Part shown: in pieces, positions 44 to 41,004 of the stretch
Layout: each line of letters opens with the position of its first letter
How positions within the stretch are numbered: position 1 is the first letter of the stretch
The notes under the pieces: generated by a model
Database searches by the model: none
What the model was told of the DNA's origin: nothing
What the model saw: only the letters and a program-made list of their open reading frames with translations
Program-made: the position numbers and the translations under genes
Assembly (NCBI RefSeq): GCF_021134715.1
Contig: NC_060025.1
Span: forward strand, 3,162,001-3,226,000
From: Daphnia pulex
Lineage: Eukaryota; Arthropoda; Branchiopoda; Diplostraca; Daphniidae
DNA: 64,000 nt
Direction of reading: 5' to 3'

Positions 44-1201
44 TTAAGGATGAAATTGAGATGCTTTGGCTACAGTCAATGGACAATGAATTTGAGCTAG
101 AGCCCCCAAAATGCTATCGCTATCCGTTGCTAAAAACGGATGCTGTCTATTCGCCTTTTCCGAATTCCACAAATGAACACCGTAGCTTCTTTTAATTTGC
201 GACAAAATGCCAATCGCATTCGTCGAATTGCTCAACTTGTCGTAGAGAACGTCAGAAAACGGCCTCTCGATCAGGAAGAAAAAATTAGACGAGAGGAGAT
301 GGATGTCCTTGCAAGTGTTGGACGACGGGTCTGCTTGAACTATTCCGCAGGAAGAATGCATCAAGAAACTGACGGCTTGCGAGCCGTGAAAAACCATTTC
401 CGATGGGTCGTATTCTTCGGCCATCAACCGCATCATTTGAACCGTCAGCCAGTGGCCGCGTTCTAGATGCATTACGCCGTTACTAATGATCCCCATGTCG
501 GAACTGTCGTAAGACAAGCAGTTGCGGAAATGATCGCCCTGGTAAGCTTTGAGAGTCAGGATGTCCGTGTCCAGGTAGAGTCCACCTCCCTTGTTGAGCG
601 TCAGGATGCGGATGTAGTCGGACAGGTGAGCGACTTGGTGTGGGCTCTTGAGCCATTGGCCCTTTTCGTACCAATCTTGCAATGGGCTTCCAGCAAAGTA
701 ATGATCCTCGTTGACTAAGACGGCAGCCACGTTAGGGTATTGCGAAAGGACCTCTAACCAGGGTGGGCTGTAAAACGTTGATGTCGAGGGAAAAGGACTA
801 GACGATTCGCTGCCAACGGAACAGCCAGCAGTCGTTCTCGGTCGGAGAAAGAGTTGGACGAGTCGGTCGTGATTGTGTTTGGCTGCCGATTCCACGGCAC
901 AGCACTGCTGCAAATTCAGATCGGCTTTACCGCTCGTTTCGTGGAAGAAGATGCGGCGATCGATCAAGTTTGCGGGTATGTTGCTGTCCAATGGTTTCCA
1001 TTGCCTGGGCAGAACATCGTTCTGCATGACTAGACCATCTGCATCAGCTGGTGATGAAACGAGGAAATCGCCAACGCACAGCACTTTGTGTTTAATACTA
1101 GCTAAACTTGGAGTCCGGATGCTGAAATGTGCCAAAAATACCAGGAACACTAAAAGAACTGAACGAAAAAACAGTCTGAACAATTTCTTTGGGGTCAACA
1201 T
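44..1201 (-). CDS. A4GALT-like DXD glycosyltransferase (copy 1)
   Basis: Single-exon protein of 385 residues. Residues about 7-26 form a hydrophobic signal anchor, so it should be a type II Golgi membrane protein with a lumenal catalytic domain. The family signature is clear: FFHETSG, then CCAVESAA, the nucleotide-sugar and metal-binding DXD motif in GGLYLDTDI, and near the C-terminus HGSQAV and GVHLWN, which belong to the lactosylceramide 4-alpha-galactosyltransferase/alpha-1,4-GlcNAc-transferase family (Gly_transf_sug plus Gb3_synth domains). The family transfers Gal or GlcNAc from UDP-sugar to a glycolipid or glycoprotein acceptor; the acceptor here cannot be read from sequence. The start was chosen because it is the ATG just before the anchor and the length suits the family. 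A spliced relative lies at 4692-6185. I see no damage. Confidence 0.88.
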   Translation of the reverse strand: MLTPKKLFRLFFRSVLLVFLVFLAHFSIRTPSLASIKHKVLCVGDFLVSSPADADGLVMQNDVLPRQWKPLDSNIPANLIDRRIFFHETSGKADLNLQQCCAVESAAKHNHDRLVQLFLRPRTTAGCSVGSESSSPFPSTSTFYSPPWLEVLSQYPNVAAVLVNEDHYFAGSPLQDWYEKGQWLKSPHQVAHLSDYIRILTLNKGGGLYLDTDILTLKAYQGDHFRNCLSYDSSDMGIISNGVMHLERGHWLTVQMMRLMAEEYDPSEMVFHGSQAVSFLMHSSCGIVQADPSSNTCKDIHLLSSNFFFLIERPFSDVLYDKLSNSTNAIGILSQIKRSYGVHLWNSEKANRQHPFLATDSDSILGALAQIHCPLTVAKASQFHP

Positions 1202-1643
1202 GTCCGTTGAATCCTGCGAAATTTTTCAAATAATCGGAACACGACCAGGGTTTAAACGACAGCAATATACAACTATTGAATCTTCTTCTAGTTGAAGATA
1301 AGACGTCTCTCGTCCGTGTGCTCCCATACCAAAGAAAATAATTTTGCGATTAATTTTCTCATTTTTGCTTTCGGCAGCCGCAACATCTCCATGTTTAGTT
1401 GTTAACGGGGGACTTACCTTTGCCAAGGGGGCGGAGTGATCGTTGATGTAGTGCATAACACGCCCAGTCAACGATGTGCAGGATCAGAGTGAAATCAATA
1501 CAGTATTAAGCAAGCGTAAAATGTAGCATTTTAAAATCAATGTATTAGAATAAGCGCAATAAATTCAACGGAAATAAATCAAGATTATTTTGAACGTCGA
1601 ATTCAATTGATGAGTTGATTATACCTGACGAGGTAATCATATT
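1202..1643. other. Intergenic spacer, 5' side of A4GALT-like copy 1
   Basis: This spacer lies upstream of copy 1 and downstream of the C1GALT1-like gene, both on the minus strand. It must hold the promoter and 5' leader of copy 1. The open frames in it have no recognisable domain, and I see no repeat or RNA gene. Confidence 0.4.
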
Positions 1644-2856
1644 CTAAAAGTTGCTCGTCCTTAACTGGATGGAAGGAAATTGTTTGATTCGAGCAACAAT
1701 CGATTCCCTTTTTTTAAAAAATGGTCTCATTATAACAACTAATGTCGGACTGTCTATAAAATGAGCGACGATTATAATTACCAATTTCGATGGGAAGAAG
1801 GCGCGAAGGGTTGACTGATAATCAAAAGGGCGGTAGAGGTTGTGAAGACTCAACTGAAGAAATCTTTCGGCGCCGTGGCAATCTCGGGTGTCACCAAAAA
1901 TGACGTCGAATACCTCGAGACACATAGCTGGAATCAACACTATCAAGAATTAATCTTTTATTATTTTTCCAAAATATTTTCTAACCGAGATAAGAATCTT
2001 CTTCTCCGTTGTGGCCGTTGATGCACATATTGAACTCGTTATTGTAAACGTGTTCGACGAATATCCGTATGGTCTCTCTAGTCATTACGTAACCTGTTAT
2101 TTTTAAAAAATCGCATGATATCCAGCAAGCAAAAATTGGTTGGCGCAAGTATATACCGGCTCCACCTCCAAAATATCCTTTGAGGAGTCGATTGTGGGCG
2201 AATCGCGAGCCGAGAAAATGCGGCAAGGAAATGTCATGAGACATAAGAAACTGCCTCAAATTATCCACGACAACATACCTGAAAAAAAAAAGAATAAATA
2301 TAAGAGAATCCAATGTAACAACTGAATAGCTATATATAGTGTCATTGAGGTGCGAGTCTATATGTACGTGTCATCGTCAGCTTTAATAAACCAATCGGCT
2401 TCGTTTAAGTGGTTCTCGTAAATATATTTCAACCCTTCGGATGTCTTTCCCCACAAAGTGCTGTAGGAATCTTCGACTGGCAGACCAATCGCTGGAATTG
2501 AAGCATCTGCAACTTATTGACTAATTAATAAAATTTAAACAACTGAAGATTTTTTTTGGATAATGATGTATACCTGCTTGTGAACTTAGAAAGAGCAACA
2601 TGTCGCATTGTTTGCCCCAAGTCTTCTGAATCAGCTGGGCTCGAAACTTACTCTTAGCAGATATGGGAATCCAGCAGAGAATTCGATGCTGGATTGGTGG
2701 ACTAGCGGAATGAGTTGCATCCCCAATTGAAACTGCAGTGCGGGTGAGCGGTAGAAACCTTCCAATAAAGGAACAGCAACCGAGGAACACAGTAACAATC
2801 CACCAGTAGCGTAAAAAAGATAAACTCAAATTGATTTTGAAAAATCGCATCTTCAT
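1644..2856 (-). CDS. C1GALT1-like core-1 beta-1,3-galactosyltransferase
   Basis: Five exons read from GT-AG sites with matching phases: 2856-2574, 2506-2368, 2278-2157, 2093-1986, 1927-1644 (311 residues). A signal anchor at residues about 14-34 makes it type II membrane. [10 protein letters not shown] and [15 protein letters not shown], then [10 protein letters not shown] with the catalytic DDD, then a GSRF...[11 protein letters not shown] stretch and FGDTRDC...ERF are the C1GALT1/T-synthase landmarks (family GT31). The enzyme adds beta-1,3-galactose to O-GalNAc to make core 1. The C-terminal part after about residue 260 is unlike the family: the usual CCSD and YxV-rich end is not visible, so either the last exon is misjoined, another exon is missed, or the copy is diverged or damaged. 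Animal genomes often hold several such copies; this one may have a different acceptor. Confidence 0.8.
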
Positions 2857-3236
2857 CTTACAGTTTGGTATATGAGATGTTTATTTGTTCACAAAAAGAA
2901 TTTACAGTCCGATTCTTTTGTCGGAATAAGGTTTGGGTCGGAGCAACTGCATCAATAAAAAATAGAAACTTCTTAATGTGGTATTTGATGCTGCTGGCAG
3001 TTTCGTGGACTCGGTGTAACAACCTCTACGAAGACAAAAGGGGCGGAGTGTTTTTAAACTTGAGTGTACTGCGTGATCTTGAGCTTGAGTGTAATTTACT
3101 GGAGGCAGCCTTCTATAGTTTGGGAAGAAAGTTCTGGTTTCCACTAAAGAATACTACACCTTAGTGTTTACAATTCAGACTTGAAATAGTATCAACAGAA
3201 AATGTGGCAAAAACTAACTTAAAAATTCACGTCATC
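2857..3236. promoter_or_regulatory. Divergent promoter interval
   Basis: The C1GALT1-like gene runs left from 2856 and the SGNH-domain gene runs right from 3237, so this 380-base interval must contain both promoters and leaders. I could not pick a convincing TATA box. Open frames on both strands here overlap each other and match nothing I know. Confidence 0.4.
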
Positions 3237-4501
3237 ATGTCAACTTACTGGAACGTGAGAGGAGTCTTCAACAGCAAATCGATTCCTTTTGTGATAATGT
3301 TTACAGTGGTGCTGGCGTTACCTTTTTATTTCAACAGGATTTTTAGGATAGCCTCTAGAGAACAGGACGTTTCACCAATGTGCACGGAAGGGATCCTTGA
3401 CGGAATTCAGTACAACAGTGAGCAAACGAACAGAGGTTTTTTAAGTGTAAGACAACGGCAGTCATGTCGACTTCATCACTACAAGTTAGAAGATACCGTG
3501 TCGTGTTTAGATAGGCTATCCACCAGTAAGAACGACGATAATTCCTCGTTGGCGCTGGTGAAGAATAGACGCCGGAATAAATTCCACATCGCTTTCGTCG
3601 GTGATTCCAGAGTGCGCATTCTGTACCTCAGTTTCATCAAAGTAAAATCAAATTTCCTATCATATTATATTACCATCATCCGCTCAGCAATAATTGTGTG
3701 TTATTATTAATTCAGTTGTTTCCGGATTACGACCGTGAATCGGACATCGACCCAACAGCCAGGCACGCGGACGCCGATGTGATCAGTTCGTTGTTTGGCG
3801 ATTTGATAGTCAGTTTCCGTTGGCGTCCGCTGATCGCCGGAAGAGTGGTCGATGACCTCCACCGATGGATTGCTATACTTCAGGGTCGTGTTGTTGTTCA
3901 AGGCCAGAACCATAACAGCAGTGATTATCCGCCTGACGTCCTTCTACTTGGAATGGCGTCATGGGACATTCTGCAGCAAGAAGGAGACGACCATCTTTGG
4001 TATGAGAAGGGGCTCGAGGATCTCGTTCCACTTTTCCAGGAATTTTTTTCCCCCAATCAAGGCCCAGGCAGTGGATTTTCCAGTGGCGATGTTGACACCC
4101 GCAAAATTATTTGGCTAAACCAATACACGACTTTTGATTTCTTTGCCGGCAACGACGGAGCCAACCGCGTCATATTCAAAGAGAAGTTGCAACTTTGCAA
4201 CCGAATCGCCCACCGAATCCTGAGGTAGCATCTAAATGAAATTTGTTTTATCAATTTGTACCTGAAACGTCAAATCATAAACAGGGGCAGTGGTGTAGCA
4301 GTATGGGATTCGGGTGACGTAATCGCCGAGGAAGCCGTTCGTGCGTGCAAACTTCATCATCGATTCGAGCGCGTCAAAGATTTCATGAGCGTGGCCTACA
4401 TCAACTGCAAGGATTACATTCACGCCGGTTATGTGGCGTTGCAGCAGATGACTCAGTTCCTCTACAATGACTTGTGCAACAAGGAATTTGACATGAATTG
4501 A
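3237..4501 (+). CDS. CASD1-like SGNH/PC-esterase domain protein
   Basis: Three exons: 3237-3641, 3716-4224 and 4285-4501, with consistent phases, giving 376 residues. The start is the ATG at 3237 (MSTYWNVRG); the frame opens slightly earlier but without an ATG. A hydrophobic segment at residues about 18-34 is a signal anchor. The block FHIAFVGDSRVRILYLSFIK carries the SGNH nucleophile serine (GDSR), and the end block DYIHAGYVAL...DLCN carries the matching Asp-x-x-His. Together these resemble the lumenal N-terminal domain of CASD1, the sialic acid O-acetyltransferase, and other PC-esterases. The multi-pass acyltransferase half of CASD1 is absent, so this is an esterase/transferase domain alone. 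I infer a role in adding or removing O-acetyl groups on glycans; substrate unknown. It faces the C1GALT1-like gene head to head. Confidence 0.72.
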
Positions 4502-4691
4502 ATTCATTGTTTTAATTATCGTTTCTTTATTATGTGATGCGACAATTTCCTGATGTTTGTTTTCGAGTTTGAGCAAAAAAGTTGATGGATTTGAACCTTT
4601 AATAGGACTATACTTATTCAAACCTTTGCTGTATTTTCCAAAATATGACGTTTAATTTAAAAAAAATTATTTTTTAAAGCTGTATGCTTCT

Positions 4692-6185
4692 TCAAAATAT
4701 TTCCGGAATGATGGAAAAAATGAGAGGGCAATGATCTCGAACCAGCCGTTTGTACGGATGTGTCTCGTTCTTGTAGATTGGGTCATCTTTGTTCATCCTG
4801 TTCCAAAGGTGGACGCCCACAACGTCCTCCGTTAGCCAACTGATGGGCATTTCTTCCGTTTCGTTGGCCATTGGTTCATCGAATAATTTTTGCATCTCGA
4901 AGTGATGGACTGGATGAAACGACGGTGCCGGAAGGACATTAAATCCAGGACAGCTGACGTATTCTAGCGATTTATGGTCCTCGGAGTTGCACCACGTTTT
5001 CAAGACGCGGAAAATCAAAGCAGGTCCGTTGTTACCCCACAAGTCTGGCCTATTAACAAGAATAATTAGACCGTTTACGTGCCATTGGAAGGTCTCGAGA
5101 CATTTTCACCTTAGTTAAAACTGATCTAGCGAGATACTGATCCACCAAGTTTTTAAAAAAAAACGAATATATAAAACCGATATCACATTTATGATATAAT
5201 CGGATATAATTACCTGAAGTTGGTGACAAAGTCCTTGATGGCAAGTTCAATGAACCGATGTTTTGCATTCGCATGAATCACATTGTTGTTGACAATTTCG
5301 CGGTCGACGGCGGCAACGAAATTGCGATAGGACGTGACGGGGCGCACAGAAATGATGTCAAGATCAAAATAATAACCGCCGAATTTGTAAACGGTCAGCA
5401 ATCGGAGCGCGTTACTCAGATTGTTGACGTGATACGTCCCTTTACGCCAATTTGTGCATTGGTACCAATGCTCCATCAGTGTTCCGGCCATGTATTCATC
5501 CACCTTGATGTCGATAAGTTGGACGTTGGCGTAGTTCTCCATGAGTATCTGCACGGTATCGAGATCGGCGTTGATTTTCACATCCGTAAAAAGTACGTTG
5601 ACTGTTAAATTTGGATTATGCAAGGCGAGGGACTCAACGGCGCAAGCCTGTCGATAACTGAGCGCACCGTTGCCCGACGTTTCTATGAAAAAGGCATTGT
5701 CTTTATCTTGACCAGAACTGGATTTCGTGCTGAAGTAGCTTTTAAGCGGCTGTGCACATGGCAAAGTGCAACTCGGTCGGCCACAAATGTCCGCAGTCTG
5801 ATTGGGGAGCTGACAGCAGGTTGCTCGATCAACCTCCGGAGTGTCACGAGTGGTAGGCCTATTTGTCTGAATACAAACAATTGTTCGTTACGTTTATAAA
5901 AATCACCTGGAATTACTGACTGGAAATGTAACACGCATAGTCCATGAATTAATGAGGACGATATTGATGGAACCTTCTTGATCTTCTTGATAAACTTACT
6001 TGGTTATACTGAAGGTTCCACTGGATTAAAATGATAAAACAAGTGCTGCCAATCAGATACAGCAACTTTACAAAGGGGCGTCCGAGAAAGAATTGAAAAC
6101 TTAAACGGTAAGTTGGATACTTGGTTTTAAAGGGAAATATGACACTGGAAATTCGAGATGTTGTGGAGTTCCTTAAAAGCCCCAT
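4692..6185 (-). CDS. A4GALT-like DXD glycosyltransferase (copy 2)
   Basis: Three exons: 6185-6000, 5866-5214 and 5049-4692, phases agreeing, 398 residues. Exon 1 gives the cytoplasmic tail and signal anchor (residues about 39-57). Exon 2 begins with a Cys-rich stem containing ATCCQLPNQT and CGRPSC, then AFFIETSG, QACAVESLAL, and the DXD motif in GGYYFDLDII. Exon 3 holds WGNNGPALI and DVVGVHLWNRM, the Gb3-synthase-type C-terminus. It should transfer galactose or GlcNAc alpha-1,4 in the Golgi; the acceptor is unknown. Compared with copy 1 it has two introns and a longer Cys-rich stem, so the two are old paralogues or one was intron-stripped. Its 3' end converges with that of the SGNH gene, 190 bases away. 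Confidence 0.87.
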
Positions 6186-8070
6186 GGTATGGTCTGACTT
6201 TCCTGTGTATTATCAACAACTTGATGATTTTCTATTGTCAATAAATGTCTTGTAACCGATTTTCTACGGTCCCGGAAATTTCCTTCGACGCCGTCTGGTA
6301 GCTAGATGTTAAATGACGATATCTTGACTATGCAATTATTGTCGGAAGACTCCATCACAAATATTTTTTGGTTTTGGCTAAGGCTTAATTTAATTAATTG
6401 GTGCTTCAAACACTGAGAGATAGAGTCGAGACCTAATAACTGTTCCTGACAATGCTCAATGGCTAATACAGAATAGCTTCCAAATTAATTTGGTTTTCAT
6501 CGCTGAAATACTACAGCTACAAGCCAAACAGACCAATCAGATTCAAGCAATACAACTCATTTATAGGGCCCACAAATTTTCACCTCGAGTTAGATAAAAA
6601 AAAAAAAAAAAACGATGATCCTTGCTATGCGATTCCAGGAAAACCCGATGATATAATATAACGACCGACATAGAATAAAAATGCGTGTAAGGCGGTGCAA
6701 GGCAATTATTTTATTATACAAGGATCTTGTCTAACACGCACTATACGTTATATTCATGCATGCTCGAGAGCGATGGCCCGTCCCTCAAAAAGAATTCAGT
6801 TGAAAACCTTAGGCTACTCACTTTTTTACTATGCACTATACGCATAGATGGGAAATTCACCATAGGTGTTACTAGCCAGGTTATTATGCACGTGTCGGTT
6901 GTTATTTGTCGATCAGAGAACCTACGCTGCTGGTCTTTTAAAAGGCAATTCCTACATTGGCCCGTCTATAGGGTACAAGATAATCTAGATTTTAGGGGAA
7001 AAAAAACTCTTTACTCGCCGTGGGCTTCGGCATGTATTCTAGGCCTCAATCTACTTCTTCATGGACAAAGGGTTGCCCCTTCGATAGCATTATAATCATG
7101 GATTAATGTAAGAAGCTCCCACTAAAAAGTTCAACAATACGTATGTGTAGGATTAATCCTAATAAAATACTTAATTTTTTGTCTGAAATTTTCGCAGACA
7201 TTCGACATAAGTTCGATGACGCAAGGGTGGTCCTGATGCTGCAATCGATTGGCGTTGACGTAATCTGATGTTAATAAAATAGTAGGCCTAATCAATATTT
7301 GAAAAAGTCACTGACTGGACTGATTCCACAGAACGCCAATCGTAACTTCGGTAATTGTCGCCAAGTTTTCAAAGGCGCCATCTAGTCCGCTGAATTCTTA
7401 TTCTCCGTGTTAGTTTGACTCGTACTTATGTTGTATTACTGCAATCTTGGTTTGCCTAGTAAAATTGTCGAACTACTAGCATGGACGTGATTGAGCGTGC
7501 TGCTTGTATAAGCATATCAATAAAGCTCTAACCTTGAAAACGTGGATACTCTACCCATTATATCCTTGGGCTTGAATGTAATATCAATTACTCGAAGTTC
7601 TATAACTAGTTTGGAAGGATGTGTACAATGTGGAGTGGTAGCACCATCACTCAATGACCCCTTATTGGCCGCCATAGTATTTTCAAGTTTGTGTATACGT
7701 GTCAGACCAACAGCAACGCCAGGTGTTTTGACGAATAGCCTAATCACCATGCCATAATAAGAGGGCCTAAACAAAATAACGTGGTCTAAAGGCAATTTTA
7801 AAGACACATCTTTCCTCGTTGATGGCATTATTATTGCATAGGATGTGCAGGGAAGATGAATTATTTTAATTCCCTTGACCTTGAAGCAGACTTACATTGC
7901 GTTGTTCCTAGGTATAATTATTTTACATTCAATGACTCCTAAAACTCCCCCCCCCCCTTTCACAATAATCAACTTTGTCTTTTTGTTCTTAACTTCTTAT
8001 ATGTTTCTTGAATCGAATGTTCGAATATTGTCCGATCGGTGGTAACGTTTGATCACATAGTAGGTTTCAA
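6186..8070. other. Intergenic region without a recognised gene
   Basis: It holds low-complexity A runs near 6597-6612 and a C run near 7949-7958. A 100-residue open frame on the minus strand at 7517-7828 has fairly balanced composition (contains YYGMVIRLFVKTPG), but I recognise no family and it has no clear splice partners. Nothing else can be supported. Confidence 0.3.
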
Positions 8071-8280
8071 TTAAAGTTCAACAACGTAAAACGTTCTCTG
8101 ATTAAAAATATGGTATTTGATATTATTGATGCCGAAAGAGTAGACCAGGCAATTGTTGTAGACAAGTGCAATCATTTTGTCGAGGCAAACCGCTTTGCGG
8201 CCGTCCTGGGCAACCATCATGCCACGAGAGATGTCAACCCAAAATCCAAGATCGAAGGCTATAACAAGCATCAAGCCGTA
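8071..8280 (-). pseudogene. Relic of an FkbM/METTL24-like methyltransferase
   Basis: The minus strand reads AQDGRKAVCLDKMI and then NNCLVYSFGINN. These align in order and spacing with DGQKSLCLDPEV and GDCLVYSFGTND of the intact methyltransferase at 11481-12464. Upstream, GWV/GMMV-type residues roughly fit the stretch before DGQ. The similarity stops right after the YSFG block: the rest of the Rossmann fold, including the KIDIEGGEW motif, is missing. I read it as the remains of a second copy, inverted relative to the intact one. It could instead be one exon of a gene whose other exons I miss, but flanking sequence gives no support. Confidence 0.55.
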
Positions 8281-8459
8281 GGTAGTGTTTCAGTGTAAAC
8301 AGCGAGTTGCTTTTATCGAATCATCAAGTAATTTTATACGGCTGTTTCTGATTTACTTCTACTACTTTCCACGTACAAAGACATGTATTGACTGATGCTT
8401 TCGTTGACAGATTGAGAGTTTCCAACATACAGCATAAGCGAAGACAAAAGCTAAAAAGC

Positions 8460-8465
8460 TTTATT
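8460..8465 (-). terminator. Poly(A) signal of fucosyltransferase 1
   Basis: AATAAA on the minus strand, about 50 bases beyond the stop codon of the fucosyltransferase that ends at 8515. Confidence 0.5.
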
Positions 8466-8514
8466 GTTCGGAAATTACTACGGTATACAAAATAGCCTAC
8501 ATTATAACGATCAA

Positions 8515-9894
8515 TTATGTGATGATTGATATCGACGACTTCGGAAGACATGGGACATCATCAAACCACCACTTGGCAATGTCTTGGTAACTTTTAGACG
8601 TTTGGTTAGCTTCCGGATCGTTGAGCTTCTCGCAAAGGGAACACCAACCGTCAAACGGCTGTCGATCCACAATCCAGTCCTTCTTCCATTCGAAATACCT
8701 GGTGTAGAGCTTGGGATTTTGATCCAGTAGGATGAGGTAGTCGGCCAGGTCTTTCGGCGACTGGAAATCGGCAGCGTGGATGAACGAATACGGTGGGGCG
8801 TAGGCGGAATAATCGGAGCCCCCGTAAACGATGGGCACAGCACCAACTTGGAGAGCCCGGTAGAATTTCTCCGTGACGTAATCGGGGCAGAAGCTATTTT
8901 CGGCTGCGATGTAGAATTTGTAATCGCCAATAATCTTGTCGCACTCGAGGCTCTTCCAAGGTTGGCAATCCAGTCCTTTGATTCCGCATTCGCCATAGAC
9001 GTCGATCGACGGATAGAATTCAAACAGTTGGCGGAAGAAATTCTCGCGGCGGCTTTGAGTCCAGCACTTGGAGACGAACCAGGCGATTTTCTTCGTTTTC
9101 TTACTCACGAAATTATCATCACTCCTCCCACTGCTATTAGTATTATTCATTAGCGTTTCTAGGAACACTGCTGGATCAGGGGGCAATAATCCCGGAGCCA
9201 ATTGGACAGGCAAAGTCTCTCTGTCTAATATCGACGAAGTCCTATTCTTCCGCCGTAAAATTCCGTACGGTTGGGGTGAATAAACGTCCGAGTCCCGACG
9301 GTAAGTCATCGTCCAGTTGAAAAATCCTTCACGAGCCACTGGATGCTGAAAAACGGGATAAATCCTGCCGGATGTTTCGGCTTCGTAAAACAGGAACACG
9401 TAACGTTGGTGAGGATTCCTGTGCGGAGGCACGTCGCTGACCGGATCGTAGTTGATGGGATGGAAGAGAAGTGCGTCGCTGTCGTTGAGGAAATTTCGGT
9501 CGTCTGTCGTCATGCAGTTGGTGACGCGACATCCGGCCCGGACGAACGGCTCCTGTCCCATACCGAATTCGAAATCTTTCCAGTGAAAGAAAGTCGTCCA
9601 AAAAAGAATCCTTTTTATTTTTTGACTTGATGAAGGCGGCAAATTTGAAATCGGCTTAACGGAATAAGGTTGCTGCTGGCGTTGATGCTTTTGAAAGACG
9701 TTGCCATCGAAGTGCAATTTCCTCACCAGCGGATGGTGAAATAATTTTAAATACAGAAGAAGAATAACAAAAGACACAATGGCGAGGAAAGGCCACCTGA
9801 TTGTTCTAGAAATCAATTTGTTACATACTCTAGACAAGGGCAGGCACATCCGAGCTAGTCGACTGACAAGAATTTCCATCGTGATCAATTTCAC
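8515..9894 (-). CDS. Alpha-1,3-fucosyltransferase (GT10), copy 1
   Basis: Single exon, 459 residues, type II membrane protein with a signal anchor at residues about 34-52. The N-terminal lobe starts at KRILFWTTFF and includes YVFLFYEAE and FNWTMTYRRDSD. The C-terminal GDP-fucose-binding lobe has KIAWFVSKC, YKFYIAAENS, DYVTEKF and VPIVYGGSDY, the hallmark of Glyco_transf_10. It should transfer fucose from GDP-fucose in alpha-1,3 linkage to GlcNAc of N-glycans or related acceptors. The C-terminal WCSLCEKL cysteine pair is shared with the two sister genes in this window. Low identity to copies 2 and 3 outside core motifs shows they are not recent duplicates. Which acceptor (core chitobiose or Lewis-type antenna) is used cannot be decided here. 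No damage is visible. Confidence 0.93.
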   Translation of the reverse strand: MKLITMEILVSRLARMCLPLSRVCNKLISRTIRWPFLAIVSFVILLLYLKLFHHPLVRKLHFDGNVFQKHQRQQQPYSVKPISNLPPSSSQKIKRILFWTTFFHWKDFEFGMGQEPFVRAGCRVTNCMTTDDRNFLNDSDALLFHPINYDPVSDVPPHRNPHQRYVFLFYEAETSGRIYPVFQHPVAREGFFNWTMTYRRDSDVYSPQPYGILRRKNRTSSILDRETLPVQLAPGLLPPDPAVFLETLMNNTNSSGRSDDNFVSKKTKKIAWFVSKCWTQSRRENFFRQLFEFYPSIDVYGECGIKGLDCQPWKSLECDKIIGDYKFYIAAENSFCPDYVTEKFYRALQVGAVPIVYGGSDYSAYAPPYSFIHAADFQSPKDLADYLILLDQNPKLYTRYFEWKKDWIVDRQPFDGWCSLCEKLNDPEANQTSKSYQDIAKWWFDDVPCLPKSSISIIT

Positions 9895-11480
9895 ATTAAC
9901 CGCAATTATATACCTAGCTAAATAGTCAATTTAACATCTTAAGCCCAGTTAAAGTAAAACGTATAGACGTCATGAAAGCAAAAAGCCAACAATTGAATCG
10001 CGAGCTGAAACAGACGAATCTTTTTCCATCCGCGGATGCCACAGTCTTGCTGACGGGCCGTAAGTGTTGAAATGGATTTCCGCAGTCGCTTATTTTTCAC
10101 ATAATTATATAGTCCGGTAACCGGACTGCAACATTTACGGAGTACAACTCTCTTATCGGACAACGCAATGTTAGTGATTCGATTTCAATGGCGTAATTAC
10201 CCCAATAATTCATTTGAGCAGCCCAATTATTTTTAATAATATCGAAATAAAGATAAACAAAAGACGTGAAAGTCTAATTAGGTAGGAAATTTTTTATCCC
10301 GCAAAAAGGATCAATTTTTTTATTCATCCTGATTTCCAATTTCCTCTTGTTTACTTGATTTCCATCACGCATTTAGCGCGCTATGCCATCTTTGTATATC
10401 TGTTTCACTTTTTAAACTATCGTCTGATTTAATGGAATTAACTCCTGCCCGAATCAACGAACATAAGTACAATGTTGAGAAGAGACTACCTGGATGGTTT
10501 TGAAAATTCAGACAGTTGCACAAGACAAGACGAAAAAAAACGCAATGAAAACAGTACGTTGTTTGTTGAATGTGGAGGCAATATTGTGAAAAACGGGATT
10601 GAAATCAAAACGTTACTGTTTAAGCTAGCGTAGCTGTTAGACAGCTCGGTCAGTTAGTTGTGATTTTCTATCGCGTATGATTTTTTCCCTTATATGTTAC
10701 CATGACCATCTCCACCATAATATGGTGCCTCTTGTTTTTTTCTTACTTGCTTGACGGAAAGTTTACAGTTCCTAGGAGAAGGAGGAGCCAAATGGAAAAC
10801 CAAAAACAAAAAAACCACCTCGAAGTGGATAGTTGGCCAACGTTAGCTTATTATTATTAAATGTTGATGGTGTGTATAGATTTGAATTAATAAAATTTGT
10901 GTTTGAATTTGGTGGAGGGAAATGACAAATTTTTTACGTCTTGCATATTATTCACTTGGAAATGCAAGGTTCTCGTTAAACAAAGACAAAATAAATAATT
11001 ATAAGGTAAACTGCACTTCATAAGAATATGCTGCGTCTGTTCCCAGCAAAAGAAAATGCGAATGAATTATCTACATGAAAACTATACATAACAACCTTCG
11101 TCATTTAAAAACACAGGCGGTATGTTGCGGTACGTTACGTCGGTTTCTACCGGCAATGATTGGTTACATACAACAACACAAGGCTCCTCTTTTTGCTTTA
11201 CTATCACACGAACATGAGTTCCAGAGTTATATCCTAGTGTTAACGTTGAATACAAGAGTCTGAAATTCGTGCGAGTTCGGTGTCTGTGATAGGGAAACAT
11301 ACCTTGAAAATATCTTTTACTCATTCACATTTTGCTTGTGAAAATTCTGTCTATAGGCCTAGAATATAGTATGTGTGTTGTAGAGTTTAACTTCCTGTTG
11401 TGCCACTTTTAACGGTTGACAGTTATTGATCCCCTAAGTCGTTTTTTACGATTTCTTCAACGCTGCACATCTACCTAATT
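9895..11480. other. Intergenic region between fucosyltransferase 1 and the methyltransferase
   Basis: This holds divergent promoters: fucosyltransferase 1 is on the left, minus strand, and the methyltransferase on the right, plus strand. The sequence is AT-rich, and I find no coding domain, RNA gene or repeat family in it. Confidence 0.4.
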
Positions 11481-12464
11481 ATGTCAGAAACTGCAATCAG
11501 CAACTTCATTAGCAAGTCGACGTGTCATTTAAAAAGGCGGAATGTCATTTTGGCATCTTTTTTCTTAGCGATATTAGCTGTTACCTACATTGGCATTATT
11601 TTCGACTCAAAGATCACCATCAAACATTATGTCGACTACCTAAAATTCCACCCGTGGACATCTGCAGCTGCATTCCGACCTTCTGCTGATTGTGATTTGT
11701 CTTCATCTTGGGACACTGTCTTGAACTCTGACACATTAACAGGCGCTCAAGTCATGCAGTACTTCAAGTGGAGCAACCGACAGTCCTGTCAGTTGGTGCA
11801 AGACTTTGGCGGGACGATGTATAAAGAGCCGTCGGGCTGGGATGGACAGAAATCGTTGTGTCTCGACCCGGAAGTGGCGCCCGTACCCGGCGACTGTCTC
11901 GTTTACTCGTTCGGCACCAACGACGAGTGGTCGTTTGACGAGCAAATGTCGGCCTACGGTTGCCAAGTTTTTGCATTCGATCCTTCGATGATGGGCGAGG
12001 ATCACTACGACCACAATCCCGGTAACGTCCATTTTTACAAATGGGGACTGGGCGACCGGGACCGACACGACACCGACTACAATTGGGAGATCCGTTCACT
12101 TTCTTCCATCTACCAGACGCTCGCCGCCCGTCACGGCCGCAAGATAATCGACTATCTGAAAATCGATATCGAAGGTGGTGAGTGGGATGTCATAACAGAG
12201 ATGATTGCATCCGGGATGTTGTCCAACGTCCGGCAACTAGGCGTCGAAATTCATTTGGTCACCAACGCTCCGCTGGAAAAGTATCGCGACTATGCGAAAT
12301 TGCTGAGATCGATGGAGACGATGGGGATGGTCCGCTTCGATTCCGAATTCAATCCCTGGTTTATGGCTAATTTCACGCGACTACCTGAGCTCGGGAAACA
12401 AAGTCAAGGGTACGAGATTGCGTGGTTTAATGCCAACCTGACCCGTCATCCTACCGGTGGTTAA
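11481..12464 (+). CDS. FkbM/METTL24-like methyltransferase
   Basis: Single exon, 327 residues. A hydrophobic segment at residues about 21-40 is a signal anchor, placing the catalytic part in the secretory lumen. DGQKSLCLDP and DCLVYSFGTNDEWSFD open the fold; FAFDPSMM is the SAM-binding acidic region; and IDYLKIDIEGGEWDVI is the strongly conserved FkbM motif. This arrangement is that of metazoan methyltransferase-like protein 24 and the Methyltransf_21 group. FkbM proteins O-methylate sugars or other hydroxyls in bacteria; the metazoan substrate is not established. Because it sits among Golgi glycosyltransferases and has the same topology, I infer a sugar substrate, possibly fucose. A relic of a second copy lies at 8071-8280. 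Confidence 0.85.
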   Translation: MSETAISNFISKSTCHLKRRNVILASFFLAILAVTYIGIIFDSKITIKHYVDYLKFHPWTSAAAFRPSADCDLSSSWDTVLNSDTLTGAQVMQYFKWSNRQSCQLVQDFGGTMYKEPSGWDGQKSLCLDPEVAPVPGDCLVYSFGTNDEWSFDEQMSAYGCQVFAFDPSMMGEDHYDHNPGNVHFYKWGLGDRDRHDTDYNWEIRSLSSIYQTLAARHGRKIIDYLKIDIEGGEWDVITEMIASGMLSNVRQLGVEIHLVTNAPLEKYRDYAKLLRSMETMGMVRFDSEFNPWFMANFTRLPELGKQSQGYEIAWFNANLTRHPTGG

Positions 12465-12546
12465 AACATTTGCGTTGCATTCCTATAATAGATTTTGTGC
12501 AAAGATGTTTCTCAATTCACTTTATTTGATGGGATGAATATAATTG

Positions 12547-12552
12547 AATAAA
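12547..12552 (+). terminator. Poly(A) signal of the methyltransferase gene
   Basis: AATAAA about 83 bases past the stop codon of the methyltransferase, in the right orientation. Confidence 0.5.
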
Positions 12553-12673
12553 ATTGACGGTCAAATCGAACAAATACACGAAATAAAAGGTAATGTTTAT
12601 TTGTAACTTCTCAGCAATTACATTGCACCAGTAATAAAAAAAAATTAAATCGAAACAAAACTAAAGGTGGCCT

Positions 12674-12702
12674 CTGTGTGTGTGTGTGTGTTTTTTTTTT
12701 AT
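12674..12702. repeat. TG microsatellite and T run
   Basis: About eight TG units followed by ten T residues, just past the 3' end of fucosyltransferase 2. Confidence 0.8.
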
Positions 12703-12737
12703 TTATTAATATTATTTCAAATTAAAATAAACATTAT

Positions 12738-14123
12738 TTATAAGGACTGTCCCAAAGTCCAGGAAAGTCTTTCGTGAAGGGCTGCCTTTTTAGTTAGTCC
12801 TTTATTCCTGCTAGTGCTTCTGTTTGATTTGTAGTGCGGCCGGAAACATCTTCCGGGGTGCCACTTGGGCAACAAACTCGGGTAATATTTCACCTGCCCT
12901 TGGTCTTGGTGAAGTTTCCGGCACAAGTCACAAAATCCGTGCCGCACCATTTGTCTGAGATCCGATTCGACGACGTAATCGTCTTTCCACCACAAATACT
13001 CGTTGTACAACGTGTCGTTAGCGTCCAGCATTTTCAGGTACTGGGCCAATTGCTCCGGCTCGTACTCCAGGGCGTCGATGTACGAGTGCTCCGGCGCCAG
13101 TTGGGCGTAGTCGGCACCACCGAAGACGATGGGCACAATGTTGCGCCGGCCCATGATGTGGAAGAACTTTTCCGTCACGTAGTCGCTGCAAATGGCGTTC
13201 TCGAACGACAAGTAGAATTTGTATTTGGACTCGAGCATGTCGTAACATTCGGGCCTCGAAGTCAACAGCTCGTGCGGCTCGCAACGGAGACCCGACCCGA
13301 GCTCGAGGTCTTCCTCGTCGCAAAATCCGTACACGTCAACTTTGACGTGCTTCTTGAGTCGCTTGATGTAGTGTTCCCGTCGCCCGTCAGTTGAGCAGTG
13401 GGAGATCATGGCCGCCACCAGAGTTCTGTTCTTCTGGCTCTCGCAATTCGTCCGAGAATTGAAATTATTGTCACAGTTGAACTTTGAGTGCGTCTCTTTG
13501 ATCCTGGCTTGGATCTCTTCGCTTGTCGTTGGCGCCGACCGTTTCGGCCGGATCCGCCCGTACGGGAAAGGAATGTCCGAGTCCAACCGGTAGGTCATGG
13601 TCCAGTTGAAATAGTTGGTGTATCCCGTGACGTTCATAGGCTCGTTGGACGGTGGGGGTTCGATGGTAAAGAAGATAAATCGTTGGTGGGGTTGACGCTG
13701 GAAATGTGGCCGTTTGGTCAGCCAAAATTCGTCGTTGAAGTTGAAGATGACGGCATCGAAGGAGCTTAGCGGACGGTACGGATATTGATGCGGGCTGTTG
13801 ACAATTTCACAGTCGCTGACTGGGCATTCCTGCTGAACGAAAGCGTCGTGTCCCGTCCCGAAAATGGTCATCTCCGATCGTCTGGGTCCATTCCAAAAGA
13901 GAATCGATTTGATTTTGGTAGAGGAGTTACTCGCCTTTGGTTGTTCCAGTTGCTGCAATAATGAATAGCGATTGTCGACAAAGATCCATTTACTATAAGT
14001 GACGAACAAGATCGCCAACAAATTCACTAGAAGAATAATCGCAAGTTTGACGAAGCGCTTCTGATTTAGAGCCATGAGAAAACAAGGCGACAACCGAGTG
14101 GTTGCTGCTGGCGTGTTGAGCAC
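12738..14123 (-). CDS. Alpha-1,3-fucosyltransferase (GT10), copy 2
   Basis: Single exon, 461 residues. The signal anchor is at residues about 26-45. KSILFWNGPRR, RFIFFTIEP and FNWTMTYRLDSD mark the N-terminal lobe; YKFYLSFENA, DYVTEKFF and VPIVFGGADY mark the GDP-fucose-binding C-terminal lobe. CDLCRKLH matches the C-terminal Cys-x-x-Cys of the sister genes. It has an unusual basic tail of about 40 residues after the normal end of the domain (KSNRSTSRNKG and beyond). The tail lacks a recognised motif, so it may be natural variation or read-through into former 3' sequence. GC content is visibly higher in the central coding part than in flanking DNA. The reaction should be fucose transfer in the Golgi; the acceptor is unknown. 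Confidence 0.92.
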   Translation of the reverse strand: MLNTPAATTRLSPCFLMALNQKRFVKLAIILLVNLLAILFVTYSKWIFVDNRYSLLQQLEQPKASNSSTKIKSILFWNGPRRSEMTIFGTGHDAFVQQECPVSDCEIVNSPHQYPYRPLSSFDAVIFNFNDEFWLTKRPHFQRQPHQRFIFFTIEPPPSNEPMNVTGYTNYFNWTMTYRLDSDIPFPYGRIRPKRSAPTTSEEIQARIKETHSKFNCDNNFNSRTNCESQKNRTLVAAMISHCSTDGRREHYIKRLKKHVKVDVYGFCDEEDLELGSGLRCEPHELLTSRPECYDMLESKYKFYLSFENAICSDYVTEKFFHIMGRRNIVPIVFGGADYAQLAPEHSYIDALEYEPEQLAQYLKMLDANDTLYNEYLWWKDDYVVESDLRQMVRHGFCDLCRKLHQDQGQVKYYPSLLPKWHPGRCFRPHYKSNRSTSRNKGLTKKAALHERLSWTLGQSL

Positions 14124-15355
14124 AGAAGATTATTCCACTTACTGAGACTAGAAGTTTTGGATATTGATTTTCCTTGTTGAAATCTGAATTACCCAGTCAT
14201 CCTCAGATTGACCTTAATTGCCGGAGACGAAGAAGAAACAATTGGATAATGAAAGAATCACGTTCAGAATTGTATAGCAAAAAAAGTGGGGACCACAAAA
14301 TCTGATCCCGAGCGATAAAAGTCTTGTTGCTGCCAAACTCGACGACTAGTTGGCTTCTTCTGCCGGCCGTCCATTTTTTCTTTCACTTTGTTTCATTTTC
14401 ACAATTTTATCTCATTAAAAAGTTCATGCACTTACATAACATACAAACTTACAAACATTTCTAGACAGCCTCAATTTCGAAACTACACATATTCCATTAG
14501 ACCCTATTACATCCGCAGAAGATCAACAAAATTATTTTGAAATATTTGTCTATATCTTTCCCAAAAAAACAATAGCAAATCCAAGCAAATCAATCAACTG
14601 CGTGGCAAACAAACTAAGTCGAATGAAATTATTGAACACCAGCCAGATTGACCTTTTTTATGCAATCCAACTCAAATTTCCGCCCGACTGCTGTGTGCTC
14701 CAGGTAAAATCTCCTCCTCCCCACCCCTCTCTATTCGACTGATAGAAAGTATAAGGCTATACTCCTAACTTAGAAACATCTTCTAGACAGACATGTCCGT
14801 AAGCACTTGAATCGATTACTTTTTAACGATGTTTTAATCACCCCCAGTGGCGTATTTACAAGGTTATATAGATATTCTGCTGGAAAGCTTGTTAATATTT
14901 CTATTTGGAGATAAATGAGTATGGGGTAGATGGCGCCAAAGGCTTTTAAGATTATATTAAAATCAAAATGTAAAAATCACGACCTCGTCATCCGAGTCGA
15001 TGCCGAATTTCATTAGTCTTGAATTTGTTGTGGCTATATGCTACCGTTCAACCATCGTTGTCGTAAACCTCAAGGATGTCGTAACTTCATACTCCATTAG
15101 TTGCCTATAGAACGTGTCGCAAACTTGCCATATATCGTTCATTCAACTATAACACAGACAAATTTTATACCCAGTTCTTCTTTCCTATTTTCGAGCACCT
15201 GATGGACCATCATAGCGGCTGGTAAGCGTTAATTGTCTACATACGTATAAAAAGGACTGTAGGCTATAATATCGTCTGGAACTTTGACTAAACTGAAAAC
15301 TTACACACCTTCATAGGTCGATTTCATTGTGTTCACCTCATCAGCATGAAACGAA
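14124..15355. other. Divergent promoter interval between fucosyltransferases 2 and 3
   Basis: The two genes point away from each other across 1.2 kb of AT-rich DNA. Just before the start of copy 3, an upstream ATG near 15346 opens a different frame. I see no other gene. Confidence 0.4.
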
Positions 15356-16669
15356 ATGAGAAAACGAGTGTCTGCAGCGAGTTACTACCTAATGCTCACA
15401 TCATTTGTATTCGTGGTATGCTTTCTCGCCTTTATCAACTACCAACATCTTGGTGTCACTCATTCGAGTATCTTGCCAATGTTTTCCAATAGTCCAGCTT
15501 CACAGCAACAGGTTATTATTTTGATAACAGATTGGCAACACTAACGACTTTAAATTAGATAGGTGTTATCTCAAATTTGTTTTTTTGTCCTCACTTTTTA
15601 GGTGTCGCATGCCAATGATGCTGAAAATGCCAATAATAACACATTTAAGAAAAATAAGAAGACCAATAAGATTGATTTGAGTAACCAATCGTCCTCGGAT
15701 GCGTTAAAAATCATTTTGCTGTGGAGTACGTGGAGTTCGACAATGGCCGACGAGCCACTAGTCAAGGCCCGTTGCCCAGTCACGTCATGTATTTTTACAG
15801 CCGACATGTCGCTCATCCACCAGAGCGACGTTGTCGTCCTCTACGTCGACACTCTGACGGACTTCCCGTTAAATCGCCGACCGGATCAGCGATTCGTTTT
15901 TGCCCAACTCGAGTCGCCAGACAACACCAAAATGGCGACGATCAATGACCCCCGTCTTCGTTACGATTATTTCAATTGGACCATGACCTATCGACGAGAC
16001 TCTGACATTTTCCTACGCGACTATTACGGATCCGTAATCAAGACAAATCATTACAGCAAATTGAACAGCAAGAGTTCCAACATCAGCCAGGAGATGACAG
16101 CTTTAATCAGAGGCAAGTCGAAATTGGTGGCCTGGTTTGTGGCCCATTGCTCCACCCCCATCCGGCGTGAAGAGTACGTCCGCCAGTTGAGTGATTTCGT
16201 AAAAGTCGACATCTACGGACGCTGCGGAAAAGATTGTCCGTCCAACTGTGACGACTTGTTGCGCACCGATTACAAGTTCTACTTGGCGTTCGAGAATTCC
16301 TGGTGCCCAGATTACGTCACCGAAAAATTCATCCGGCCTTTGGTCTACGACTCGGTGCCGATCGTTTTGGGTGGGGCCGACTACAGTCATTTCGCCCCGC
16401 CGCATTCCTACATCAACGCCAGGGATTTTGATTCGCCAAAAGAATTGGCCGATTATTTGATTCGGTTGGACAAATCGGACGATCTTTACGCCCGATACTT
16501 TGAATGGAAAAGAGACCACGACATCACTCTGCTCGACCTGTCCGGATGGTGCGACTTGTGCCGAATGGCTCACGATAATACCCTACCGGCCAAAACCTAC
16601 CGCGACATCAAACAGTGGTGGATGCTGGATGAAGGAGAATGCGAAACCGATTCAACCAAATATTTTTAG
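15356..16669 (+). CDS. Alpha-1,3-fucosyltransferase (GT10), copy 3
   Basis: Two exons, 15356-15511 and 15602-16669, 407 residues. Exon 1 encodes the short cytoplasmic tail and signal anchor (residues about 11-29); the intron of 90 bases has GT-AG ends and leaves the frame intact. Exon 2 has a Lys/Asn-rich stem, then KIILLWSTWSS, RFVFAQLE, FNWTMTYRRDSD, KLVAWFVAHC, YKFYLAFENS, DYVTEKF and VPIVLGGADY: a complete GT10 domain. CDLCRMAH is the shared C-terminal cysteine motif. It has the shortest stem of the three copies and is the only one with an intron, which falls between anchor and catalytic domain. It should act on GDP-fucose in the Golgi; acceptor unknown. Confidence 0.92.
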
Positions 16670-24967: not shown

Positions 24968-25632
24968 ATGCAGGTAAGAAGTTATAAGAAGTGCCTGTTC
25001 AGTCATAAGGAATCAACAGTAACCGAAAGATTATTTGGTTATTTATCTACAGTTCCTCATCGTCGCCGCTCTCGTCGCTGTTGCCGCCGCCAATTCCGCA
25101 TACCCGACTCCAGCTCCAGCTTACCCAGCAGCTCCAGCTTATCCCGCCCCTGGATACAAGACTGAATCATACGTAAAAGTCTACCTTAGAAAAACTAATA
25201 GCCGGCTTATAGCCAATATTATTTTAGAAGTTACGAGCACTCGCTATTCACAGAGATAAGCGTGATTTGGTTCAATTGATTCCTAACAAATGTCGTGTTG
25301 TCTTCTTTTCCATTTAGCCCCCACAGCCGTACAGCTTTGACTGGGAAGTCAACGATGCCCCATCTTACAACAACTACGGCCACTCTGAGAAGAGCGACGG
25401 AAAAGTGACCACCGGATCTTACCGTGTTTTGCTTCCCGATGGCCGCACCCAGATCGTCACCTACAAGGCTGACAGCTACGGATACGTTGCTGACGTCAAG
25501 TACGAGGGTGTAGCCAAGTACCCCGAGTACAAACCCAGCACATATGCTGCCCCAGCTTACAAAGCTCCCGCATACCCAGCAGCAGCTCCCGCTTACCCCG
25601 CACCTGCCTACAAGGCTCCCGCCAAGTACTAG
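24968..25632 (+). CDS. RR-1 cuticle protein 2
   Basis: Three exons: 24968-24973 (Met-Gln), 25053-25172 and 25318-25632, giving 146 residues. The signal peptide is MQFLIVAALVAVAAANS. A short PAYPAAPAYPAPGY repeat follows, then the RR-1 chitin-binding domain with YSFDWEVND, DGKVTTGSYRVLLPDGR and VTYKADSYGYVADV. The tail repeats PAYKAPAYPA. It has the same exon layout, intron phases and promoter as cuticle protein 1, so the pair arose by tandem duplication. The main differences are in the low-complexity Ala-Pro-Tyr repeats, which are longer here. It is a secreted exoskeleton protein. Confidence 0.94.
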
Positions 25633-28159: not shown

Positions 28160-28272
28160 GAACGATACTACTTCGACGTATCAATGAACTTCACGTGAAA
28201 ATCAGGGGAATAGTTTGTTTGAGAAAGTGTAGAAAAACTTCTAAAAATTCATAACTTACAGGGATTAGGACA

Positions 28273-32335: not shown

Positions 32336-32473
32336 TTCAGCTCGGAAAACAAATGCAGCAGCAAATTCTTCTTCGATAATTCGATAATTCAGATGATTAC
32401 CACTAAAGAGCCAAGGAACCCTTACGTGACGGTGAACAAAAACGACTAACAAGCTGACTGGCCGAGTAGCCAA

Positions 32474-40655: not shown

Positions 40656-41004
40656 TTCAACTCTGAAAATTTTAACTGAAGAAATAAAATATGTAAATTG
40701 ATCGGCAAGACCTATGCTTTAGAGTAGACAAAAATGACTGAACAGGTAGAGCAGACAATTGCCTCCAAAGACAAAGCGGAATCGTCGAACGACGACGACA
40801 GTTAATCGTCGAATAACGAGAAGTCAAATCGTCGTATTAAATATTTCAGGTAGAAAAAATTTAAAAGACTTTGATACAAGCTTTAATCAATAAAATTTAA
40901 TATTTTTTATTTTGCTGCTGGCGATAATTCTGAATATTTTCTTAGAAATCGTCGAGGTGTCTTTTTACATGCGAAAATAATTTGTTGGAAAGTGTTTAAC
41001 AATT

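What the first reader, a model, noticed from the sequence alone, without database searches (positions are those of the whole stretch)
44..16669. Eight glycan-modifying genes from five families in 16.7 kb
The sequence shows two A4GALT-like enzymes, a C1GALT1-like enzyme, a CASD1-like SGNH protein, three GT10 fucosyltransferases and an FkbM/METTL24-like methyltransferase side by side, with no unrelated gene between them. All eight have an N-terminal hydrophobic anchor typical of Golgi type II proteins. Animal genes of one pathway rarely cluster across unrelated families. Tandem duplication explains the three fucosyltransferases but not the mix. I infer a cluster serving one surface glycan: galactose addition, fucosylation, and possibly acetyl- and methyl-type decoration. 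This is the best candidate for an undescribed system in the window.
Basis: partly seen in the sequence, partly recalled or inferred. Interest (0 to 1): 0.85.

Follow-up and report, generated by a model that had tools for sequence, protein, structure and literature searches.

The report
Daphnia glycan-enzyme cluster, resistance-locus kind
A water-flea genome carries, on several chromosomes, recurring mixed clusters of genes for sugar-decorating enzymes of at least five families; the one found here matches in composition a known parasite-resistance locus of Daphnia magna but lies elsewhere, and part of it corresponds to a block in another chromosome's cluster.

Summary
The window starts inside a 19-kb run of ten glycan-enzyme genes (two lie just left of it): four GT10 fucosyltransferases, three A4GALT-type enzymes, one C1GALT1-type, one SGNH/CASD1-like, one METTL24-like methyltransferase. 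The clustering is not chance: with the window left out, all five families co-localise genome-wide (6-10 times expectation at 20 kb; BTB, trypsin and cuticle controls show nothing comparable). Eight clusters hold three or more families, three hold all five (null means 0.15 and 0). It is not an undescribed kind: the Daphnia magna Pasteuria-resistance locus lists the same five, and C. elegans has mixed glycan-gene clusters. But the syntenic counterpart of that locus (sestrin and calcipressin nearby) is on contig C10, so the window is a second, non-orthologous cluster. Part of it is collinear with a cluster on C7 (70-82% DNA identity, with relics). The three fucosyltransferases are not tandem copies of each other; two of them, and both A4GALT genes, have closer kin in other clusters. 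Best reading: Golgi enzymes decorating a surface glycan, in modules copied between chromosomes. One shared glycan, and a role in parasite attachment, are inferred.

The parts
44..1225 (-). A4GALTa: A4GALT-type (GT32) glycosyltransferase, single open exon, coding 1201 down to 47
   Evidence: Pfam Gb3_synth E 8.3e-24; nearest of 9 compared rows is C10:652k, 59% identity, support 99/97; pairwise dN/dS 0.25-0.30
1603..2856 (-). C1GALT1-type (GT31) gene, six exons, 300 aa
   Evidence: GT..AG introns of 58-89 bp; solved C1GALT1 7q4i E 9.7e-59 over 240 residues, DDD kept
3237..4501 (+). PCE: SGNH/PC-esterase-like (CASD1-like) protein, three exons, 376 aa
   Evidence: GDS and D..H invariant in 10 of 10 aligned family members; no Pfam hit of its own; exons 2-3 80% identical in DNA to C7:11.778M
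4692..6185 (-). A4GALTb: A4GALT-type gene, three exons, 398 aa
   Evidence: Pfam Gb3_synth and Gly_transf_sug on its two main exons; 82% DNA identity to C7:11.780M; sister of that copy, 87% protein identity, support 99/100
8122..8305 (-). relic of a Methyltransf_22-type gene
   Evidence: tblastn 57% over 28 aa; 75% DNA identity to C7:11783540-11783717, itself in a methyltransferase-like stretch
8515..9879 (-). FUTa: GT10 fucosyltransferase, single exon, 454 aa
   Evidence: Pfam E 3.3e-55; FUT9 8d0o E 2.1e-32; clade with C10:654k and C8:7908k, 98/96
11481..12464 (+). MT: METTL24-like (Methyltransf_22) methyltransferase with N-terminal anchor, 327 aa
   Evidence: Pfam E 8e-18; predicted class I methyltransferase fold of moderate confidence, FkbM 2py6 among many matches
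12738..14075 (-). FUTb: GT10 fucosyltransferase, single exon, 445 aa
   Evidence: Pfam E 3.4e-56; groups with C7:1789k, 93/91, just under the tool's threshold
15356..16669 (+). FUTc: GT10 fucosyltransferase, two exons, 407 aa
   Evidence: Pfam E 1.8e-59 on exon 2; sister of C7:11428k, 96/91; dN/dS 0.16

Best explanation
This is one of several mixed glycan-decoration clusters in a Daphnia genome, of the same make-up as the Daphnia magna Pasteuria-resistance locus but at a different place. Shown: five unrelated families of secretory-type enzymes co-cluster repeatedly; part of this cluster is collinear with a cluster on another chromosome and carries a relic; the five genes that could be tested evolve under constraint. 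Inferred: the proteins sit in the Golgi and act on one class of surface glycan, most likely mucin-type (core-1 galactose by the C1GALT1-type enzyme, terminal galactose or GalNAc by the A4GALT types, fucose by GT10, O-acetyl by the SGNH protein, O-methyl by the methyltransferase). Inferred further: gain, loss and copying of whole modules changes the epitopes shown on gut and cuticle, which would change which parasite spores can attach, as proposed for the resistance locus.
For: Co-clustering with the window left out: at 20 kb GT10 27 of 94, A4GALT 18 of 30, MT 17 of 31, PCE 19 of 45, C1GALT 5 of 17 loci lie near another glycan family, against 3.7, 1.9, 1.8, 2.8 and 0.8 expected. Eight clusters with at least three families, three with all five; in-contig shifts give means 0.15 and 0, and none of 3000 reach the observed counts; still 6 and 2 after removing the window and its C7 sister block. 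D. magna PR locus lists the same five families. Sestrin and calcipressin, listed for that locus, lie at C10:15.66M, 42-47 kb from the five-family cluster C10:15.709-15.758M. Collinear block C9:3158274-3170305 with C7:11773933-11783717. Kin in other clusters for FUTa, FUTc, A4GALTa, A4GALTb. dN/dS 0.15-0.30 in eight of eleven pairs, covering five of the eight genes. Further glycan families (GT7, FkbM) in C7 clusters and two carbohydrate-sulfotransferase loci at C7:106-129k. Methylated, fucosylated core-1 glycans exist in nematodes (PMC6272458, passages).
Against: No expression, glycan or infection data. Gene order differs between clusters, so they are not one conserved operon-like unit. 126 of 226 loci lie outside mixed clusters. 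GT10 loci show a weak excess near trypsin genes (9 of 94 against 3.1 expected, 59 of 1000 shifts at 20 kb; 18 against 6.6, 30 of 1000, at 50 kb). PCE's family assignment rests on motifs; Pfam hits are weak and absent for the window's own member. Methyltransferase substrate unknown; its model is moderate (mean pLDDT 70). Synonymous sites are near saturation in seven of the eight usable pairs (dS 1.1-2.8).
Confidence: 0.6

Rival explanations
1. Linkage without shared function: the families became neighbours once, and regions prone to duplication (often near chromosome ends) then copied mixed blocks around. The mix recurs by descent, not because the enzymes act together.
For: A collinear inter-chromosomal block with a relic; 7 of 8 clusters with three or more families lie within 0.9 Mb of a contig end, the window's being the exception; recurrent C1GALT1-A4GALT adjacency, 4 of 18 C1GALT loci (the window's included) within 5 kb of an A4GALT against 0.07 expected.
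Against: Other tandem-expanded families (BTB, trypsin, cuticle) do not mix with each other and hardly with these; the excess remains after dropping the window, its sister block and the C10 cluster; gene order and orientation differ between clusters.
Confidence: 0.3
2. A housekeeping or developmental glycan cluster (cuticle, peritrophic or egg glycans) with no role in parasite resistance.
For: Tested genes are constrained; glycosylation terms are expanded across Daphnia and were discussed with stress and cuticle (PMC12102780, passages). Cuticle-protein genes lie on both sides of the cluster and a GH18 ORF on its left.
Against: The same five families make up a mapped resistance locus in D. magna with presence/absence polymorphism (PMC5340410); a fucosyltransferase is a candidate for the F locus and a fucosyltransferase and an A4GALT-type gene for the G locus.
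Confidence: 0.25
3. Chance neighbours plus ordinary tandem duplication.
For: GT10 is very abundant here (98 merged loci).
Against: Shift tests and the fucosyltransferase tree.
Confidence: 0.02

Closest known systems
Daphnia magna Pasteuria-resistance locus (PR locus, ABC supergene, Pasteuria Resistance Complex)
   Same: Fucosyltransferases, alpha-1,4-glycosyltransferases, galactosyltransferase, PC-esterases and a methyltransferase in one locus (PMC5340410, passages)
   Different: The window lies on C9, without sestrin or calcipressin; those mark C10:15.66M, whose cluster is the syntenic counterpart. No resistance data for the window.
C. elegans mixed glycosylation gene clusters (C13A2, K06H6, T15D6)
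   Same: Glycosyltransferases of several families with potential methyltransferases side by side; meaning of the clustering unknown (PMC7614267, passage)
   Different: Family membership not compared here; no link to a resistance locus in the passage seen.
CASD1 / PC-esterase family
   Same: GDS and DxxH catalytic motifs; Cas1p subfamily reported as expanded in Daphnia (PMC2824669, passages; PMC4510713, passages)
   Different: Single N-terminal hydrophobic segment, no multi-membrane acyltransferase part; Pfam hits weak or absent
Invertebrate O-methylated core-1 glycans (Toxocara)
   Same: Core-1 galactose, fucose and methyl groups on one glycan (PMC6272458, passage)
   Different: No glycan has been measured for this locus; a C. 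elegans study says the fucose-modifying methyltransferase remains to be identified

Membership tests
Daphnia magna PR locus (as an ortholog) | same five enzyme families together | tested here: met
   against the gene list in PMC5340410
Daphnia magna PR locus (as an ortholog) | sestrin and calcipressin in the same locus | tested here: not met
   each maps to one place, C10:15.66M, not C9; so the window is not filed as the ortholog
Daphnia magna PR locus (as an ortholog) | non-homologous haplotypes and association with spore attachment | not testable with these tools
   one genome only, no phenotypes
GT10 fucosyltransferase | Glyco_transf_10 domain above cut-off and similarity to a solved fucosyltransferase | tested here: met
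   three genes; FUTa only
A4GALT-type (GT32) | Gb3_synth and DXD-bearing Gly_transf_sug regions above cut-off | tested here: met
   (and for the gene left of the window)
C1GALT1 | similarity to solved C1GALT1 over the catalytic domain, with DDD | tested here: met
   the window protein is shorter in a stretch before the CCS motif
CASD1 | SGNH domain fused to a multi-membrane acyltransferase | tested here: not met
   one N-terminal hydrophobic segment only; not filed as CASD1
PC-esterase / SGNH | GDS serine and DxxH | tested here: met
   invariant columns G122 D123 S124, D348 H351 in 10 of 10
PC-esterase / SGNH | recognised by the Pfam PC-Esterase model | tested here: inconclusive
   2 of 10 members, best E 0.025; the window's own member none up to E 10
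Methyltransf_22 / METTL24-like | domain above cut-off, class I methyltransferase fold | tested here: met
   (broad fold level only, low TM-scores)
Methyltransf_22 / METTL24-like | methylates glycans | not testable with these tools
   substrate unknown; needs an enzyme assay

The most novel reading that the evidence does not exclude
Daphnia keeps a dispersed, modular set of glycan-decoration islands: mixed enzyme sets from seven or more families, copied as blocks between chromosomes and reshuffled, that generate surface-glycan diversity against adhering parasites. The known resistance locus would then be one island of many, and the window another.
Probability: 0.4. Interest if true: 0.82.

Novelty: new member of a known kind. 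Interest (0 to 1): 0.62.

Why it matters
The molecular basis of Daphnia-Pasteuria matching is open. A genome-wide set of clusters with the resistance locus's own composition gives a defined list of candidate loci (eight with three or more families) and makes the 'glycan code' idea testable: which clusters vary between clones, are co-expressed in gut or cuticle, and alter spore attachment when removed. It also offers candidates for unidentified invertebrate glycan methyltransferases and a case of non-random gene order across unrelated animal enzyme families. In the ten literature searches here I saw no report of this genome-wide co-clustering; only listings and passages were seen, and subscription papers, among them Naser-Khdour et al. 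2024, were not found in the library.

Tried and rejected
Rejected: chance clustering; window as ortholog of the D. magna resistance locus; tandem origin of the three fucosyltransferases. Pfam Fringe was too weak to map C1GALT1-type genes exon by exon (one search missed the window's own), so a protein query was used. PDB searches found no relative for PCE or the methyltransferase; the structural searches put the methyltransferase in a broad class I fold (TM-scores about 0.2-0.5) without naming a substrate. A weak match of A4GALTa to a clostridial glucosyltransferase toxin (TpeL, E 0.028) covers 31 residues around a generic DXD motif and is not taken as kinship. Mistakes found and mended: the fucosyltransferase tree had three wrong-frame rows and is replaced; the A4GALT tree had one wrong-frame row (the C7:11780k copy) and is replaced. 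In one search one A4GALTb exon-3 pair was read in the wrong frame and two FUTa pairs had saturated synonymous sites; these three of eleven are not used. NCBIfam gave only a sub-threshold FkbM hit for MT among five proteins. Limits: counts are exon-level matches merged within 1.5 kb; PCE and C1GALT counts rest on one query each and are lower bounds; control lists were cut at about 150 best matches; contig lengths were approximated for all twelve contigs and for seven of twelve; trees used 13 of 98 GT10 and 10 of 32 A4GALT loci; alignment A1 used the 9 distinct PCE relatives with at least 230 covered positions among loci held, shorter ones dropped.
Full report
What was given. The window is C9:3162001-3226000 of a 133.19-Mb genome in 13 contigs.

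The observation. Stop-to-stop ORFs and Pfam confirm two A4GALT-type genes, three GT10 fucosyltransferases and a Methyltransf_22 gene. I spliced the rest: a six-exon C1GALT1-type gene, a three-exon SGNH/CASD1-like gene (PCE), a three-exon A4GALT-type gene and a two-exon fucosyltransferase, with GT..AG introns and no stops. Each window model carries one N-terminal hydrophobic segment (A4GALTb scored without its last exon). The C1GALT1-type protein matches solved C1GALT1 (7q4i, E 9.7e-59), FUTa matches FUT9 (E 2.1e-32). PCE has no Pfam hit, but ten aligned family members keep GDS and D..H without exception, the triad shown for CASD1 (PMC4510713, passages); 2 of the 10 have a weak PC-Esterase hit. 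The Cas1p subfamily was reported as expanded in Daphnia (PMC2824669, passages). PCE lacks CASD1's membrane acyltransferase part. Five gap ORFs had no Pfam hit.

The cluster is cut by the window edge. A fourth fucosyltransferase (FUTd, C9:3159463-3160791, +) and a third A4GALT-type gene (A4GALTc, C9:3160911-3161999, -) lie just left, giving ten genes in 19.2 kb. GPCR genes of one family lie on both sides (left flank at 3118-3157 kb, and window 47.9-49.1 kb).

Genome-wide test. I mapped the five families and merged matches within 1.5 kb: GT10 98, A4GALT 32, MT 32, PCE 46, C1GALT 18 loci. Leaving the window's cluster out of every set, 27 of 94, 18 of 30, 17 of 31, 19 of 45 and 5 of 17 loci lie within 20 kb of another glycan family, against 3.7, 1.9, 1.8, 2.8 and 0.8 expected from shifts within contigs (0, 0, 0, 0 and 13 of 2000 shifts reach this). 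Results at 10 and 50 kb agree. BTB (147 loci), trypsin (118) and cuticle (143) families show no comparable excess with these families or with each other; the nearest thing to an exception is GT10 with trypsin (9 of 94 against 3.1, 59 of 1000 shifts; 18 against 6.6, 30 of 1000, at 50 kb). Single linkage at 20 kb gives 104 clusters: 19 with at least two families, 8 with three, 6 with four, 3 with all five; shift means are 4.9, 0.15, 0.003 and 0, and none of 3000 shifts reaches any observed count (an earlier 2000 shifts with rougher contig lengths gave 0.17, 0.004 and 0.0005 for the last three). Without the window and its C7 sister block 17, 6, 5 and 2 remain, and without the C10 cluster too 16, 5, 4 and 1. 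126 of 226 loci lie outside mixed clusters.

What it matches. The D. magna Pasteuria-resistance locus lists fucosyltransferases, alpha-1,4-glycosyltransferases, a galactosyltransferase, PC-esterases and a methyltransferase, plus sestrin and calcipressin among others (PMC5340410, passages). In this genome sestrin (C10:15.662-15.665M) and calcipressin (C10:15.667M) lie 42-47 kb from the five-family cluster C10:15.709-15.758M. That cluster, not the window, is the syntenic counterpart. The F locus of D. magna has a fucosyltransferase candidate, the G locus a fucosyltransferase and an A4GALT-type one (PMC9894429, PMC11917490, passages). Mixed glycan-gene clusters with potential methyltransferases were noted in C. 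elegans (PMC7614267, passage). So the kind is known; this locus and the genome-wide pattern I did not find described.

How the cluster arose. DNA comparison with six fetched cluster regions shows one collinear, same-strand block: C9:3158274-3159301 with C7:11773933-11776080 (75-76%), PCE exons 2-3 (80%), A4GALTb (82% for its two main exons, 70% for the first), and a methyltransferase relic at C9:3170128-3170305 with C7:11783540-11783717 (75%). One 61-base piece matches out of order. The C7 PCE copy looks broken: it matches in three frames and its first exon was not found. FUTd, A4GALTc, A4GALTa and the C1GALT1-type gene have no counterpart in the 20 kb of C7 fetched. Other window genes have kin elsewhere: A4GALTa with C10:652k (99/97) and A4GALTb with its C7 copy (87% identity, 99/100); FUTa with C10:654k and C8:7908k (98/96), FUTc with C7:11428k (96/91), FUTb with C7:1789k (93/91). 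These trees used 10 of 32 A4GALT and 13 of 98 GT10 loci, so closer kin may exist. The three window fucosyltransferases are 33-40% identical to each other. C1GALT1-A4GALT adjacency recurs (4 of 18 C1GALT loci within 5 kb, the window's included; 0.07 expected, none of 5000 shifts). dN/dS in the eight usable pairs of eleven is 0.15-0.30, for A4GALTa, A4GALTb exon 2, MT, FUTb and FUTc; seven of the eight have dS above 1.

Further families. Two C7 regions also hold GT7 (B4GALT-type) genes, and two C7 regions and C10:1.81M FkbM-type ones (of four ORFs scanned for FkbM one is above cut-off, three below). Two carbohydrate-sulfotransferase loci lie in or beside C7:108-140k: 2 of 9 such loci are near a glycan family (214 of 2000 shifts), while 3 of 30 A4GALT loci are near a sulfotransferase (0.25 expected, 23 of 1000). 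Seven of eight clusters with three or more families lie within 0.9 Mb of a contig end; the window does not.

Mechanism. Shown: composition, recurrence, a shared inter-chromosomal block, constraint in five genes. Inferred from family knowledge: Golgi localisation; core-1 synthesis, alpha-galactosylation or GalNAc transfer, fucosylation, O-acetylation and O-methylation. A real glycan of that type, methylated fucose on methylated core 1, is known from Toxocara (PMC6272458, passage), and the worm fucose methyltransferase was said to remain to be identified. The methyltransferase model is a class I fold of moderate confidence and gives no substrate. The direction of block copying was not tested. 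A role in parasite attachment is by analogy with the D. magna locus only.

Verdict. Observation confirmed and enlarged; interpretation partly right. New member of a known kind, within a genome-wide pattern that deserves follow-up.

Noticed in passing
C10:625564, 635569, 645579 (L035-L037): Three GT10 remnants spaced 10,005 and 10,010 bases, a very young tandem triplication or an assembly artefact.
   Followed up: no
C2:10976321-10991969 and 11170321-11185969: Five PCE-type match pairs repeat at an offset of exactly 194,000 bases, which looks like a recent large duplication or an assembly artefact.
   Followed up: no
window 47895-49150 and C9:3118237-3157367: GPCR (7tm_1) genes of one family lie on both sides of the glycan cluster, best matches 60-74% identical.
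   Followed up: partly
C7:11418085-11419075, 11771591-11772638, 11776337-11777192, 11436620-11437279; C10:1814037-1814636: GT7 (B4GALT-type) and FkbM-type methyltransferase genes or fragments inside or beside glycan clusters.
   Followed up: partly
C7:106294-106953 and 128947-129606: Two Sulfotransfer_2 loci in or beside a four-family glycan cluster.
   Followed up: partly
window 31208-32473 and 39549-40718: Two BTB-domain genes, the first Pfam-confirmed on its own, both found in the genome-wide BTB search.
   Followed up: no
window 25321-25512: A Chitin_bind_4 (cuticle protein) match right of the cluster; others lie left of it at C9:3102412 and 3136597.
   Followed up: no
window 26750-28180: Single open frame with a probable coiled-coil part and a C-terminal DnaJ domain.
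   Followed up: no
C2:9101148-9102252 and C8:4476572-4477765: Isolated methyltransferase-A4GALT pairs about 1 kb apart, with stops in three of the four matches, perhaps relics of former clusters.
   Followed up: no
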